Source: Fibrobacterota bacterium | GTDB taxonomy: Bacteria > Fibrobacterota > Fibrobacteria > UBA11236 | Assembly (NCBI GenBank): GCA_028287505.1 | Contig: JAQBPN010000011.1 | Coordinates: forward strand, 1-64,000 | Length of the DNA stretch: 64,000 nt | Reading direction: 5' to 3' | In this document: positions 13,519 through 40,340 of the stretch, in pieces | Layout of the letters: every line of letters starts with the position of its first letter | Position numbering within the stretch: the first letter of the stretch is position 1 | Notes under the pieces: model-generated | What the model was told of the DNA's origin: nothing | The model's input: only the letters and a program-made list of their open reading frames with translations | Databases searched by the model: none | Made by a program: the position numbers and the translations under genes

Positions 13519-13664
13519 GGCGTTTCGTCGGGCGACGGGCGTCGGGCGTCGGGCGTAAAAACCAGTAGAATGGATGCCTTTTTGCCTTATCCCCGGTTTT
13601 TACGCCCAACGCCTAGGCGGAAGACCGGAGGCTGAGGGCAGGCCGTACGCCCGACGCCCGACGA
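13519..13664. repeat. CGTCGGG-heptamer palindromic element, copy A
   Basis: Left arm 13526-13555 is four tandem heptamers (CGTCGGG, one variant CGACGGG) ending GGGCG. The right arm ends with CGCCCGACGCCCGACGA at 13648-13664. The core contains the inverted pair GCGTAAAAACC / GGTTTTTACGC (13553-13605 region), a terminator-like stem. The left flank GGCGTTTCGTCGGGCG (13519-13534) is the exact reverse complement of the right end of copy C (40325-40340), which defines the element boundary. It occupies most of the 334-bp gap between the chaperone gene and the STAS gene; nothing else was seen there. Confidence 0.8.
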
Positions 13665-31546: not shown

Positions 31547-32685
31547 AGCGGAGCGCGTTCTACAAGTACCTTAAAAAGCCGGGAAGCTACCGCATCCTGG
31601 CCGGCAGCATCATCGTGGGCTTGCTGGCCTTGGCCACCCTGACCGGCGGCGCGTGGACCAGCTACGGGCCCGATGAACTGGATCTGGATCATCTGCTCAC
31701 GCCTCCTTCCGTGGGGTGGATGAAAAGGCTGCTCGCCACCGAGGCGGGCCTGCGCATGCAACAGCGCAATCAGGCCGGCGGGCGCGGGGATTCACATCCC
31801 CGGGCGGTGACCGCCGACGACGAGGATTTGGATTTCCTGCAAGGCGATTCCGCCCGGGACGGCAAGCCCGCGGAAGACAGCGCATCCCTGGGAGGCGCCG
31901 CAGGCTCTCCGACGGATGCCGGGTCCGGAGGCGAGGGCCCATCGGCGGCAGGGGCCGCCACCGGCGGCGACGGCGGCTACGGTCAGGAAGCCAGGCATAC
32001 CAACAAGGCCCACCTGCTGGGCACGGACAAGAACGGGCGGGACATGATGGCCCTGCTGGTGGCCGGGGCGCGCAATTGTTTCCTGCCGGGACTGGTCACC
32101 TGCGCATTCGCATTGGGATTGGGCGTGCCCCTGGGCCTTTTCGCAGGCTACTACGGCGGCCGGGTCCGCAAAATCGTGGGCACCTTCAACAGTACCATCC
32201 TGTCCCTGCCCCGCCTGGTCCTGATCCTGGTGGTGATCTGCGCCCTGGAGCCGAACGTCTACTACACCATGGGCGTGCTGGGGGCCACCTTGATCCCGCG
32301 CGTCTCGGAACTGATCGCCACGCGCGTGCGCATCCTGTCCAACATGGGTTTCATCCTGGCGGCCAAGGAAGCGGCCTTGAGCGATTTCAAGATCCTGTAC
32401 CGCCATCTTTTCTGGTACCAGAACCGGGCCGTCTTCTTCATCCAGTTCTCGCTGATCATGGCGGAATCGATCCTGGTGGAAACCACTCTGAGCTACCTGC
32501 AGTTCGGCACCAAACCGCCCGAGGTTTCCTGGGGCAATATCATAGAGGGCAGCCAGATGTCCTTCTTCAGCGGGTTCTATTGGATCACCTTCTTCCCGGC
32601 CATGGCCATCATCCTGGCCATCCTGGGATTCTTCTACCTGGGCGACGGATTGAACGCAAGGCTGGCATATCGTGAAGGAAGATAG
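31543..32685 (+). CDS. Peptide ABC transporter permease, DppC/OppC type, with long low-complexity insert
   Basis: A 380-residue permease. Helix 1 (AGSIIVGLLALATLTGGAW, about 20-38) is followed by an unusual Gly/Ala/Ser/Asp-rich insert (about residues 60-150) and then the family hallmark HLLGTDKNGRDMMALLVAGA (about 156-175). Five more helices follow, with the EAA loop AAKEAALSDFKILYRHLF. DppC proteins normally reach the LGTD motif within about 80 residues, so the insert adds about 80-90. It is probably periplasmic, facing the binding protein. The gene overlaps the DppB-like permease by 4 bp. Confidence 0.88.
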   Translation: MKRSAFYKYLKKPGSYRILAGSIIVGLLALATLTGGAWTSYGPDELDLDHLLTPPSVGWMKRLLATEAGLRMQQRNQAGGRGDSHPRAVTADDEDLDFLQGDSARDGKPAEDSASLGGAAGSPTDAGSGGEGPSAAGAATGGDGGYGQEARHTNKAHLLGTDKNGRDMMALLVAGARNCFLPGLVTCAFALGLGVPLGLFAGYYGGRVRKIVGTFNSTILSLPRLVLILVVICALEPNVYYTMGVLGATLIPRVSELIATRVRILSNMGFILAAKEAALSDFKILYRHLFWYQNRAVFFIQFSLIMAESILVETTLSYLQFGTKPPEVSWGNIIEGSQMSFFSGFYWITFFPAMAIILAILGFFYLGDGLNARLAYREGR

Positions 32686-32704
32686 GATCAGGATGTCCAT
32701 AGGA

Positions 32705-32897
32705 GTTCGTCGGGCGTCGGGCGTCGGGCGTCGGGCGCGGGGAGCGGCTGCTACTGGGGCTGGGCACAGCTATTTAATTTGCGACTCTGCGAGGCGGCGG
32801 TGGAATGCCACGCCGTTCGCCCCAGCCGCCCACTCCCGCAAGGTAAAATGCGCTCTTCGCATTTTACGCCCGACGCCCGACGCCCGACGCCCGACGA
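32705..32897. repeat. CGTCGGG-heptamer palindromic element, copy B
   Basis: The left arm 32708-32737 is four perfect CGTCGGG heptamers plus CG. The right arm ends CGACGCCCGACGCCCGACGA at 32896. Inside the right half is a hairpin GTAAAATGCG / CGCATTTTAC (32843-32852 and 32858-32867, loop CTCTT). The element fills the gap between the second permease gene and the fused ATPase gene, so it interrupts the transporter operon, and it could reduce or tune expression of the ATPase. Confidence 0.85.
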
Positions 32898-32919
32898 TCT
32901 CTTCGCAGGCGGAGGCTCA

Positions 32920-35022
32920 ATGCTAGAAGTCCCTCTGCTCTCCATCAAAGACCTGTGCATCTGGTTCGGCGGCGGCGGCAATTATCTCAAGGCCGTCAAC
33001 CATGCCAGCCTGGAAGTGGGCCGCGGGGAAATCGTAGGGCTGATAGGGCAATCGGGGAGCGGGAAAACCACCCTGGCCATGGGGCTGCTGGGCCTGGTCA
33101 AAGGCTATCCGGGCCTATGGGCGGGTACGGCCGAATTGGACGGGAAGAACCTGCTTCCCGATATGAGCCGGTTGATCACCCTGAAGGGCGACAACGTCGA
33201 GAAGCGTTACATCCCGTATCAGCGCGCCCATCGACGCCAACTGCATGGCGTGCTCGGCCGCGAAATCGCCACCATTTTCCAGGAGCCGAAGGCATCCCTG
33301 GATCCCTTCTATACCGTGGGCGAGCACATGCTGGAGGCTTTGGAGCGGAACCTCGATCGCCACGGGGGCGCCGCAACGGGCGGCGGGCTCAAGGCGGTCG
33401 GCATCGGCCTGCTCAAGGATGTGGGCCTGGTGGACGCGGAAAACCTGTGGGGGCTGCATCCCCATGAAATCAGCGGCGGCATGGCCCAGCGGGTTATGAT
33501 TTCCATGGCCTTGTGCGCCAAGCCCAAGCTCCTGATCGCCGATGAGCCTTCCACGTCCCTGGACGTAACGACGCAAGCCAAGCTCTTGCAACTGTTCCTG
33601 CACCTGCGCGACAAGCACGGGCTCTCCATCATCATCATTTCCCACGATATCGGCGTCATCCAGGAGATCAGCTCCCGCATCTATGTCATGCACCGCGGAT
33701 CGGTGGTGGAAACGGGCGCCTCGGCCAGGGTATTGTCTTCGCCCAAGCACCCTTACACCGCGTCCCTGCTGGATTCCTTTTCCCGTTTCGGAGAGAAGCT
33801 GCCCATGCCGCCCGCCAATCCGGATGCGGGCAAAGGGTGCGCCTACCGTGAGATGTGCGCGGCCTATCGGGGCATGCTCACCCAGGATGAGAGGACGCGC
33901 TGCGAAGGGGACAAGCCGCCGGGGCAGGCGGAAAGCCTGGCCGCCGCCGCGGGCGTCGCTCCGGTCGATTGGTCCAAGTGCCATTACGCGGACAAGAACA
34001 AGGCCCACGGGCCGGGAACCCCCTCCACCGCGAATATGGACCGCCTGTCGGCCGCGGACGGTTCCCAAGAGAACATCGTGGAAGTGCGCGCCCTGCGTAA
34101 GCGCTTCTCCCAGGGAACCCGGTCCTTCCTGGCCCTCAACGACATCTCGCTCTCCATCCCCAAGGGAGGCACTTATGGCCTGGTGGGGGAGAGCGGTTCC
34201 GGCAAATCCACCTTGGGGCTTTCCCTGATGGCCCTGCAGGACGTGGACGGCGGGGAAATCATCTACAAGGGCGAGGACATCCTCAAGCAGAGCAAAGCCC
34301 GCATGCTGGTCCTGAGGCGGGAAATCCGCATGTTGTTCCAGCATCCCGAAGGCGTGCTGAACAGCGGCATGACCATCGAAAGCATCCTGGCCGAGGGCCT
34401 GGAACGGGAAGGCCGCGTGGAGACCGCGGACAAACGCCGGCGCGTATCGGAAGCCCTGGAGCAGGTCCGCCTCGATCCGAGCCACGGGGCCCGCTACCCC
34501 AGCAACCTGAGCTCGGGGGAAAAGCAGCGGGCGACCATCGCCCGGGCCCTGATCACCAAGCCCGCATTTCTGGTCTGCGACGAGCCCGTGGCCAGCCTGG
34601 ACCTGGCCATCCAGAGCCAGGTCATGTCCCTGCTGAAGGAGTTCCAGCGCCACCTGGGTCTGTCCTATCTCTTCATCTCCCACAATCTCGCCCTGGTGAA
34701 AATCCTGGCGCATCGCATCGGCGTCATGTACATGGGGTATCTGGTCGAAGAGGCGCGCGTGGAGCACTTCACCGTCTCCGGGGTGCGCCATCCCTATACG
34801 CGCCTGCTGCTGGCTTCGACGCCCAGCCTGGACCCGGGAATCCGGGAAGTGCTGGCGGCCTATCCCGACGTGGAGCCGGTGCGCCTGGAAGGCGGTTGCC
34901 CATTCCGCAACCGGTGTCCGGTCTACCTCTCCAAGCGCGATTCGATCTGCGAGACGGCCATGCCGCCTTTGGTGGAGCACTCCGCAGGGGCGCGCGTAGC
35001 CTGCCATTTTCCCTTGGGCTGA
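32920..35022 (+). CDS. Fused double ATP-binding protein of peptide ABC transporter (DppD-DppF fusion)
   Basis: A 700-residue protein joining both ATPases. Domain 1 (about 1-320): Walker A GQSGSGKTT, signature ISGGMAQRV, Walker B LLIADEPST, plus the oligopeptide-type C-terminal Cys-rich extension (GKGCAYREMCAAYRG). A linker of about 40 residues follows. Domain 2 (about 380-700): Walker A GESGSGKST, signature LSSGEKQRA, Walker B FLVCDEPVA, and a second Cys-containing tail GGCPFRNRCPVYL. One chain replaces the usual heterodimer. ATG 32920 is preceded by GGCGGAGG; upstream in-frame sequence is repeat copy B. The gene ends at a strong terminator. Confidence 0.92.
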   Translation: MLEVPLLSIKDLCIWFGGGGNYLKAVNHASLEVGRGEIVGLIGQSGSGKTTLAMGLLGLVKGYPGLWAGTAELDGKNLLPDMSRLITLKGDNVEKRYIPYQRAHRRQLHGVLGREIATIFQEPKASLDPFYTVGEHMLEALERNLDRHGGAATGGGLKAVGIGLLKDVGLVDAENLWGLHPHEISGGMAQRVMISMALCAKPKLLIADEPSTSLDVTTQAKLLQLFLHLRDKHGLSIIIISHDIGVIQEISSRIYVMHRGSVVETGASARVLSSPKHPYTASLLDSFSRFGEKLPMPPANPDAGKGCAYREMCAAYRGMLTQDERTRCEGDKPPGQAESLAAAAGVAPVDWSKCHYADKNKAHGPGTPSTANMDRLSAADGSQENIVEVRALRKRFSQGTRSFLALNDISLSIPKGGTYGLVGESGSGKSTLGLSLMALQDVDGGEIIYKGEDILKQSKARMLVLRREIRMLFQHPEGVLNSGMTIESILAEGLEREGRVETADKRRRVSEALEQVRLDPSHGARYPSNLSSGEKQRATIARALITKPAFLVCDEPVASLDLAIQSQVMSLLKEFQRHLGLSYLFISHNLALVKILAHRIGVMYMGYLVEEARVEHFTVSGVRHPYTRLLLASTPSLDPGIREVLAAYPDVEPVRLEGGCPFRNRCPVYLSKRDSICETAMPPLVEHSAGARVACHFPLG

Positions 35023-39159: not shown

Positions 39160-40257
39160 ATGGCCCTGGAGCCGTCGCGTCCCTTTATCATCCATACTTC
39201 GAATCCTGAAATCGGCGGCGCCGAAGCGAGCCTGCTCGCCGCGGCCGCGCAGATGGTCTCCGTCTCGAACGGCGCGAAGCCCATTTTCCTGGTGCCCGCG
39301 GAGGGATCCCTGTCCCGCGGGATTGCGGCCCGCGGTTGGGAATACCGCGTGCTGCCTTGGCCGCGCGGCCTCGCCGGCCTCACCCAGAGCCGATGGTTCG
39401 CCTTGCCGCTGGTGATCCCGGGCCTGATCCCGTATCTGTTCCGCCTGCAGCGCGAATGCAGGAACGCCGGGACCGTCTGGTCCAGCGGCGTGAAAAGCCA
39501 CGGCGCCTGCCTGTTGCTCGCCCCCCTGTTGGGCTCAAGACTCCTCTTCGACATCCGCGATTTCCTCAGGCCGCTGAAGTTGCGCAAAGCCATTGCATGG
39601 GCCTCGCGGCGTTTCGGATGCAAGGTGGCGGCCAACAGCATCGCCGTGGCCGCGGATTTCCCCGGTGCCCTGGTCCGTTACCCCAGGGTGGAAATGGGCC
39701 GCGCGCCCGTGGACCGGCGCCAAGCCGGTCCCGGTGGAAAACGCATCATCTCGCATCTGGCCTACTTCGCCCCCTACAAGGGCCAGGATCTGTTCCTGAC
39801 CTGCGCGCGCAAGCTGCTCGACGCGGGCGTGGACGCGGAGTTCTGGATGATCGGCGACGTGATCTACCCCGCGGACGCTTACGCGCGCTACCGGGAACGG
39901 ATTTACGAATTGACGGGACGTCTGCGCCTGTCCGCGCATGTGCGCTTTCTGGGCAAAGTGGAGGGCGGGGAAGAGGTGCAGAAGCTGCTGGAGCAGACGC
40001 ACCTGCTGTTGCATTGCACGCGCGAACCGGAGCCCTTCGGACGATCCGTGCTGGAAGCCCTGATGTGCGGCAGCGAGGCGATTTGCCACAAGGGAAGCGG
40101 CGTGGCGGAGGTGACGGAGACTGGAGAATACGAAGAGTGGATGAAGCCGCTCAGGGAGATTTTGGGTGAAGATTATATCAGGGTGCGCTTGAAGGACGAT
40201 TCGTCGGGCGTCGGGCGTCGGGCGTCGGGCGAAAAAACCGGGAAGCTCTCGGAGTAA
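39160..40257 (+). CDS. GT4-type glycosyltransferase with repeat-encoded C-terminus
   Basis: A 365-residue enzyme with the GT-B fold: an N-terminal IIHTSNPEIGGAEASLLAAA loop (about 8-27) and a C-terminal donor-binding domain with HLAYFAPYKGQDLFL, then EPFGRSVLEALMCGSEAI (EX7E-type motif). It transfers a sugar from an activated nucleotide donor. Alternative start: GTG 39145, overlapping the upstream stop (GTGA). The last 18 codons (SSGVGRRASGEK...) come from the left arm of repeat copy C and are unlike the rest of the protein; the stop lies in a terminator loop. It is separate from the large polysaccharide cluster at 54-64 kb. Confidence 0.82.
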   Translation: MALEPSRPFIIHTSNPEIGGAEASLLAAAAQMVSVSNGAKPIFLVPAEGSLSRGIAARGWEYRVLPWPRGLAGLTQSRWFALPLVIPGLIPYLFRLQRECRNAGTVWSSGVKSHGACLLLAPLLGSRLLFDIRDFLRPLKLRKAIAWASRRFGCKVAANSIAVAADFPGALVRYPRVEMGRAPVDRRQAGPGGKRIISHLAYFAPYKGQDLFLTCARKLLDAGVDAEFWMIGDVIYPADAYARYRERIYELTGRLRLSAHVRFLGKVEGGEEVQKLLEQTHLLLHCTREPEPFGRSVLEALMCGSEAICHKGSGVAEVTETGEYEEWMKPLREILGEDYIRVRLKDDSSGVGRRASGEKTGKLSE

Positions 40258-40340
40258 GCTCCGGAGCGGTTTTTTCTTCTCTTTACGCCCGACGCCCGAC
40301 GCCCAGGCACGCTTCGTGCCGGGTCGCCCGACGAAACGCC
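40202..40340. repeat. CGTCGGG-heptamer palindromic element, copy C
   Basis: The left arm 40202-40231 is four perfect CGTCGGG heptamers plus CG and lies inside the 3' end of the glycosyltransferase gene. The core carries an intrinsic terminator. The right arm (CGCCCGACGCCCGACGCCC, about 40287-40305) is followed by the small hairpin GGCAC-gcttc-GTGCC (40306-40320) and the end CGCCCGACGAAACGCC (40325-40340), which is the exact reverse complement of the left end of copy A. Confidence 0.85.
40231..40277. terminator. Intrinsic terminator inside repeat copy C
   Basis: An interrupted stem GCTC-T-CGGAG / CTCCG-GAGC with TAAG loop is flanked by AAAAAACC and GGTTTTTT, so it can work on both strands. 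It separates the glycosyltransferase gene from the convergent oxidoreductase gene. The glycosyltransferase stop codon TAA (40255-40257) is in the loop. Confidence 0.75.

What the first reader, a model, noticed from the sequence alone, without database searches (positions are those of the whole stretch)
13519..13664. Dispersed palindromic element built from CGTCGGG heptamers (three copies)
Three intergenic sites (13519-13664, 32705-32897, 40202-40340) share the same architecture: four tandem CGTCGGG heptamers on the left, their inverted counterpart (CCCGACG) on the right, and a 60-130 bp core with terminator-like A/T-flanked stems. The outer boundary of copy A's left end is the exact reverse complement of copy C's right end, which shows a defined unit that can lie in either orientation. 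Core sequences differ, so arms are conserved while the inside varies. This resembles REP/BIME or MITE-type elements, but the heptamer-array arms are not a REP family I know. A mobilising transposase may exist elsewhere in the genome.
Basis: seen in the sequence. Interest (0 to 1): 0.7.

Follow-up and report, generated by a model that had tools for sequence, protein, structure and literature searches.

The report
Mobile hairpins with seven-base arms
The three sites are small copies of a hairpin-shaped, probably mobile DNA element; its gene-carrying version holds a single gene long known only from inserts in ribosomal RNA genes, and across many bacterial phyla that gene sits between the same kind of seven-base repeat arms, which points to an overlooked family of mobile DNA.

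Summary
The host is a Fibrobacterota genome with about 85-90 such elements (estimated): inverted CGTCGGG arrays of up to four units around a core that often ends in a two-way terminator-like hairpin. They avoid divergent promoter regions and lie just after stop codons. Recent copies match from arm to arm and nowhere beyond. Sister species have empty sites, relics, or the same architecture built from another heptamer. Elements are copied units, not plain terminators or slippage repeats. There is no Y1/RAYT transposase, no reverse transcriptase and no target duplication.

The longest copy carries an intact gene, the genome's only PF05635 (23S rRNA intervening-sequence protein, a four-helix bundle related to DGR Avd). 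A sister species with GGGTAAA palindromes has its only PF05635 inside one of those; three sister species with few or no elements have none. Among 57 PF05635 loci not chosen for repeats, 42 have 7- or 8-base arrays on both flanks, against 1 of 546 control genes, with a different unit per gene. The Coxiella 23S rRNA insert has the same parts according to the literature.

Best reading: IVS-like mobile elements and their non-autonomous offspring. That the protein mobilises them is inferred, not shown.

The parts
13526..13663 (.). Element A, whole palindromic unit (non-autonomous)
   Evidence: DNA fold -48.7 kcal/mol, z -5.5
13526..13553 (+). Element A left arm: CGTCGGG CGACGGG CGTCGGG CGTCGGG
13555..13603 (.). 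Element A inner inverted repeat GTAAAAACC...GGTTTTTAC (terminator-like tip)
   Evidence: A-left/T-right pattern of the family
13650..13663 (-). Element A right arm: CCCGACG x2
32708..32896 (.). Element B, whole unit, inserted between two oligopeptide-type ABC transporter genes; absent at this site in four sister species
   Evidence: RNA fold -150.9 kcal/mol, z -9.2
32708..32735 (+). Element B left arm: CGTCGGG x4
32843..32867 (.). Element B inner hairpin GTAAAATGCG-CTCTTC-GCATTTTAC
32869..32896 (-). Element B right arm: CCCGACG x4
40202..40333 (.). Element C, whole unit, at the 3' end of a glycosyltransferase gene; orthologous element in G005, one-heptamer relic in G002, absent in G003
   Evidence: DNA fold -66.3 kcal/mol, z -10.3
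40202..40229 (+). Element C left arm: CGTCGGG x4
40231..40276 (.). Element C two-way terminator-like hairpin GAAAAAACCG...CGGTTTTTTC
40288..40301 (-). Element C right arm, inner two heptamers
40305..40320 (.). Element C side hairpin AGGCACGCTTCGTGCC; a hairpin of different sequence sits at the same place in the G005 orthologue
40327..40333 (-). Element C right arm, outermost heptamer

Best explanation
The three sites are non-autonomous copies of a mobile element whose ends are inverted arrays of about four tandem heptamers. The complete version is about 460 bp: heptamer arm, one PF05635 gene (23S rRNA intervening-sequence protein / S23p / four-helix bundle, Avd-like), inverted heptamer arm. 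Copies that have lost the gene keep the arms and often carry a two-way intrinsic-terminator hairpin, so they are tolerated or useful just after stop codons and are purged from divergent promoter regions. Each PF05635 lineage uses its own heptamer, and the solo palindromes of a genome share the heptamer of its gene-bearing copy. Shown here: many copies, exact arm-to-arm units, empty sites, gene within the arms in three species, the cross-phylum gene-arm association, and purifying selection on the gene. Inferred: the PF05635 protein (a five-fold ring in Xanthomonas) binds the heptamers, possibly one per subunit, on the folded single strand (ssDNA or RNA) and brings about copying into a new site with host enzymes.
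For: Copies: 147/138 double heptamers, control 0/0, about 85-88 elements. Unit: copies 85-92% identical align from -1 to +1 of the arms while flanks are unrelated. Presence/absence: B empty in G002, G003, G004 and G005; other sites empty in G002 or G005; G005-only sites empty in G000. Gene: the genome's only PF05635 (E 1.7e-36) lies inside a CGTCGGG palindrome; G003's only one inside a GGGTAAA palindrome; one of G005's three inside CGTCGGG; G001, G002 and G004, with few or no elements, have none. Association: 42 of 57 PF05635 loci not selected for repeats have 7- or 8-nt arrays on both flanks versus 1 of 546 control genes, Fisher p 9e-51; both-flank counts are 37 at period 7, 6 at period 8 and 0 at 4-6 and 9-12. 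Across phyla, left flank versus reverse-complemented right flank of the same locus scores 19 (median) against 8.5 for mismatched loci. Gene-bearing elements span a median 460 bp with median 4.4 units per arm. Selection: G000 and G005 genes at the same site, 71% amino-acid identity, dN 0.24 with dS saturated. Literature: the Coxiella 23S IVS has S23p, a 28-bp terminal stem and tandem heptamers.
Against: No transposition was observed; presence/absence between species can include losses. PF05635 has no known catalytic activity, and 15 of 57 loci lack clear arms on both flanks at this threshold. No target-site duplication and no defined target beyond a flanking T/A and purine-rich flanks. In Parathalassolituus the arrays are mostly in one orientation. 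PF05635 and many solo palindromes are inherited at orthologous sites, so at least part of the family is old and vertical. Many of the 57 loci come from related Fibrobacter species and are not independent.
Confidence: 0.7

Rival explanations
1. An RNA regulatory system: PF05635 is a host RNA-binding protein (TRAP- or Hfq-like ring) and the heptamer hairpins are its target sites at mRNA 3' ends, acting as terminators or stability elements; the arms round its own gene give autoregulation.
For: Elements lie a median 55 bp after stop codons and avoid divergent gaps (1 of 65 against 157 of 608, p 2e-7). Cores carry A-runs left and T-runs right (57 of 68 each, against 27 and 20 for the reverse). Hairpin-plus-T-run in 27 of 67 elements against 9 of 67 shuffled. 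Side-hairpin stems change in a compensatory way. The gene is under purifying selection.
Against: Exact arm-to-arm copies at unrelated loci and insertion of B between two transporter genes that abut or nearly abut in relatives need a copying process. The association holds for one-gene elements on plasmids and between cas genes.
Confidence: 0.2
2. REPIN/MITE-type repeats moved by a conventional transposase (RAYT or other) that was missed or has been lost.
For: Location, palindromy, copy number and lack of target duplications resemble REPINs (literature).
Against: No Y1 transposase (PF01797) in G000, G002, G003, G004 or G005; the gene inside the arms is PF05635 in three species with two different heptamers; REP tags and stems are absent. 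Only Y1 was searched, not other transposase families.
Confidence: 0.1
3. Quadruplex-forming simple sequence repeats that expand by polymerase slippage (the Xanthomonas/Nostoc GGGNATC class of Rehm et al. 2015), with no mobile unit.
For: G3N4x4 is strongly enriched in intergenic DNA here (65 against 0.4 expected, only for 4-nt loops); array size is capped at four.
Against: Slippage does not copy a 200-bp unit with its core between loci. Only 6 of 39 arm pairs round PF05635 meet a strict G4 motif; octamer families exist. So the inverted arrangement and the period, not quadruplex potential, are what is shared.
Confidence: 0.05
4. Ordinary ancestral intrinsic terminators that happen to share a stem sequence.
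For: Terminator-like tips and position after genes.
Against: Empty sites, relics and heptamer replacement at orthologous sites; identical arms but diverged cores; an element inside a transporter gene cluster.
Confidence: 0.03

Closest known systems
23S rRNA intervening sequences with an S23p/IVP gene (Coxiella, Leptospira; PMC4990558)
   Same: A PF05635 gene within terminal inverted repeats; in Coxiella a 28-bp stem and tandem heptamers (GACAGAT) next to the gene; about 430 nt; long suspected to be mobile.
   Different: Here the unit is in protein-coding intergenic DNA, not in a 23S rRNA gene, and has about 85 gene-less relatives in one genome.
Heptameric quadruplex-forming repeats of Xanthomonas and Nostoc (Rehm et al. 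2015, PMC4692102)
   Same: Heptamer unit, preference for four units, intergenic, under-represented between divergent genes, 70-75 inverted pairs per Xanthomonas genome. Both taxa carry PF05635 (PDB 2gsc is XCC0516 of X. campestris; Nostoc plasmids).
   Different: No link to a gene, to a copied unit or to terminators was reported there; here the heptamer differs between sister species and quadruplex potential is not general.
REPINs / RAYT system
   Same: Small palindromic units dispersed in intergenic DNA, non-autonomous copies plus one gene-bearing copy, no target duplication.
   Different: No Y1/HUH transposase; tandem 7-mer arms in place of GTAG-tagged stems.
GTAG/CGTC-tagged REPs (Di Nocera et al. 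2013, PMC3733652)
   Same: Starts with CGTC; lies after genes; no dedicated transposase known for the CGTC group.
   Different: Those are 20-40 bp with an unpaired tag, an 8-9 bp stem beginning with AT and a CCA tail; none of this is present.
TAACTGA heptamer repeats of Beggiatoaceae and cyanobacteria (PMC4679880)
   Same: Intergenic tandem heptamers, patchy distribution.
   Different: Direct repeats upstream of start codons, not inverted arms; a PF05635 link was not tested here.
Avd of diversity-generating retroelements
   Same: Same fold; PHROG Avd match at 5e-6.
   Different: No reverse transcriptase in G000 or G003.

Membership tests
23S rRNA IVS / S23p element | encodes PF05635 (23S_rRNA_IVP) | tested here: met
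   Gene-bearing copy L152:12484-12968: PF05635 4.1e-37, TIGR02436 4.9e-36. The three window copies themselves carry no gene.
23S rRNA IVS / S23p element | terminal inverted repeats forming a long stem | tested here: met
23S rRNA IVS / S23p element | inserted in a 23S rRNA gene and cut out by RNase III | tested here: not met
   Elements lie between protein genes; RNase III cutting not testable
REPIN/RAYT | Y1 (PF01797) transposase in the genome | tested here: not met
   none in G000 or in G002-G005
REPIN/RAYT | GTAG-tagged 20-40 bp REP doublets | tested here: not met
   Arms are tandem CGTCGGG arrays
CGTC-REP | unpaired CGTC tag, 8-9 bp stem starting AT, CCA tail | tested here: not met
   Arm sequence against PMC3733652
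MITE of a classical DNA transposon | terminal inverted repeats | tested here: met
MITE of a classical DNA transposon | target-site duplication | tested here: not met
   38 elements, no direct flanking repeats of 2-9 bp above expectation
Heptameric G-quadruplex repeats (Rehm 2015) | heptamers, four-unit preference, avoidance of divergent gaps | tested here: met
Heptameric G-quadruplex repeats (Rehm 2015) | quadruplex formation | not testable with these tools
   Motif present here; only 6 of 39 PF05635 arm pairs have it
Intrinsic terminators | GC hairpin followed by a T-run | tested here: inconclusive
   Met for a part only: 27 of 67 at -9 kcal/mol against 9 of 67 shuffled
Retroelement using Avd and reverse transcriptase | reverse transcriptase in the genome | tested here: not met
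   no PF00078 in G000 or G003

The most novel reading that the evidence does not exclude
PF05635 four-helix-bundle genes define a widespread class of bacterial mobile elements without a recognised transposase: a ring protein that recognises tandem 7- or 8-nt inverted arms, with its own heptamer per lineage. 23S rRNA intervening sequences, PF05635 genes within cas loci, and the heptameric repeats of Xanthomonas, Nostoc and others would then all be its products.
Probability: 0.5. Interest if true: 0.92.

Novelty: new variant of a known kind. Interest (0 to 1): 0.85.

Why it matters
It would join observations that stood apart for decades: the origin and mobility of 23S rRNA intervening sequences, the function of the orphan S23p/IVP protein, and the origin of intergenic heptamer repeats. 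It makes a clear prediction (protein and heptamer go together) that can be tested by survey, binding assay and a transposition assay. It also points to DNA copying that uses neither of the enzymes tested here, a Y1 transposase or a reverse transcriptase.

Tried and rejected
RAYT/Y1 search: none in the element-bearing species. Reverse transcriptase, suggested by the Avd likeness: none in G000 or G003 (G005 was not in that set). CGTC-REP membership: rejected on structure. Quadruplex as the shared property: holds for G000, G003 and G005 but not for PF05635 arms in general. Outer 65-bp purine-rich flanks as part of the stem: left and right flanks of one element are no more complementary than random pairs; they may be a target preference or come along with insertion, unresolved. 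Target duplications: none. The named-genome scan mostly found one-sided heptamer arrays in other phyla, useful mainly as a route to further PF05635 genomes.

Full report
Check. The three sites are real and far beyond chance (12 double heptamers, 0 in shuffles). The window is contig C117 of a 6.07-Mb, 130-contig genome. Its congeners include records named Fibrobacteres bacterium nzgw217 and Fibrobacteria bacterium 336R_metabinner_36: loci from those records match contigs of G005 and G002 in length and content, so the host is taken to be a member of the Fibrobacterota.

Family in the genome. CGTCGGGCGTCGGGC occurs 147/138 times with a reversed control of 0/0. In the fetched 1.47 Mb, 62 of 89 places are an F array followed by an R array, never R then F. 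From unit counts the genome holds about 85-88 two-armed elements. The longest runs of GGG tracts have 2 to 4 units and hardly ever more. Cores are modular: side hairpins and a tip that is A-rich on the left and T-rich on the right (57 of 68 cores each; 27 and 20 for the opposite). Terminator-like hairpins are enriched over shuffles and over other gaps, though present in only about 40% at a strict threshold. Folds are much more stable than shuffles. Side-hairpin stems vary in a compensatory way; the samples are small.

Place. With genes called by a hexamer model, 68 elements fall in codirectional (42), convergent (22) and almost never divergent gaps (1), against 157 of 608 gaps being divergent. 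They start a median 55 bp after a stop codon. Flanks are purine-rich towards the element for about 65 bp on both sides, but not self-complementary.

A copied unit. Elements sharing a core at 85-92% identity align from the first to the last base of the arms, and the similarity stops there (L168 and L192, 92% over 203 bp). No target-site duplication is seen. In congeners the same sites can be empty: copy B is absent in four species, where the two transporter genes are 3-74 bp apart. Elsewhere sites hold a relic, or the same architecture with another sequence. At site A, G002 has a (CGCCAGT)6 right arm, G003 has AAGGGTA-type arms and G001 TTAGGGG-type repeats. G003 has dozens of F/R pairs of GGGTAAA, GGGTACA and GGGTTAA heptamers. 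So the site or architecture can persist while the heptamer is replaced. G002, with degenerate arms at several sites, looks like a genome where the family is dying.

The gene. No Y1 transposase is present in G000 or in G002-G005. [quoted passage not shown] closest solved structure XCC0516 of Xanthomonas campestris, 1.1e-25; Avd profile match 5e-6). It is the only PF05635 gene of the genome. G003's only PF05635 lies inside one of its own GGGTAAA palindromes, and one of G005's three lies inside a CGTCGGG palindrome. G001, G002 and G004 have no PF05635 and few or no elements. The G000 and G005 genes are at the same site, 71% identical in amino acids with saturated silent sites and dN 0.24: the protein is kept by selection. 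G000 and G003 have no reverse transcriptase.

Generality. In 30 named heptamer-bearing genomes of many phyla, 13 have PF05635, and most of those genes lie between inverted arrays, each with its own heptamer. These genomes were reached through a heptamer search, so I also used samples not chosen for repeats: Fibrobacterota relatives, plasmids and the phylum at large. There, 42 of 57 PF05635 loci have 7- or 8-nt arrays on both flanks, against 1 of 546 control genes. By period the both-flank counts are 37 (7 nt), 6 (8 nt) and 0 (4-6, 9-12). Arms have a median of 4.4 units and the whole gene-bearing element spans a median 460 bp. Related Fibrobacter loci are not independent, so the p-value (9e-51) overstates certainty; but plasmids of cyanobacteria, a Gemmatimonadota and an alphaproteobacterium show the same. 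Octamer families occur, among them the PF05635 gene between cas10 and cmr3 of Picosynechococcus.

Known work. The Coxiella 23S IVS is a 428-nt element with S23p, a 28-bp terminal stem and tandem GACAGAT heptamers beside the gene; earlier authors suspected a mobile element (PMC4990558). Rehm et al. described heptamers with four-unit preference, avoidance of divergent gaps and inverted pairs in Xanthomonas (PMC4692102) without a gene or mechanism. CRISPR surveys noted PF05635 in cas loci (PMC3936711). Ten literature searches found no paper that joins heptamer arms with PF05635; preprints and most subscription papers were not searchable.

Mechanism. Shown: discrete copied units, gene within the same arms, heptamer specific to species or gene, selection on the protein, compensatory hairpin changes. 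Inferred: the protein, a homopentameric ring of four-helix bundles in Xanthomonas (PMC4990558 citing Lin et al. 2006), binds the single-stranded or folded arms, perhaps one heptamer per subunit, and lets the unit be copied to a new site with host enzymes. The main rival is an RNA-regulatory role at mRNA 3' ends; both can be true. The step from binding to insertion is not known.

Noticed in passing
L366 892-1260; L370 895-1251; L371 898-1257 (cyanobacterial plasmids): PF05635 genes lying between cas genes are flanked by inverted 7-mer (L366, L371) or 8-mer (L370) arrays, so their presence in cas loci may be insertion, not a CRISPR function.
   Followed up: partly
L377, L365, L372, L356: Some PF05635 genes have arms with a period of 8, not 7, so the unit length is not fixed.
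   Followed up: partly
window 39160-40257: The glycosyltransferase frame reads into element C, which supplies its C-terminal residues and stop codon; G005 shows the same at its own copy.
   Followed up: partly
window 32685-32920: Element B separates two oligopeptide-type ABC transporter genes that are 3-74 bp apart in relatives, so it may affect operon expression.
   Followed up: partly
L168:4001-4198, L192:4001-4201, window 32736-32868, L207:6727-6906: Several cores share a GGAAGCGGCGGCGGAACGC...GCCGCCCA multi-stem module; its role is unknown.
   Followed up: no
elements of G000, 65 bp outside each arm: A purine-rich flank with weak motifs (GGAATTTGA about 30 bp out, TTTTAGCAGCATTT next to the arm) on both sides, not complementary to each other; target preference or part of the unit, unresolved.
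   Followed up: partly
L047, L056, L110 and other Parathalassolituus penaei loci: Long one-sided CGTCGGG arrays (up to 67 units) in a genome whose single PF05635 gene (L332) has the same heptamer on one flank.
   Followed up: partly
G000 contig ends C4, C13, C40, C48, C58, C62, C66: Several contigs of the assembly begin or end in or near these elements, so the hairpins probably break the assembly and copy number may be underestimated.
   Followed up: no
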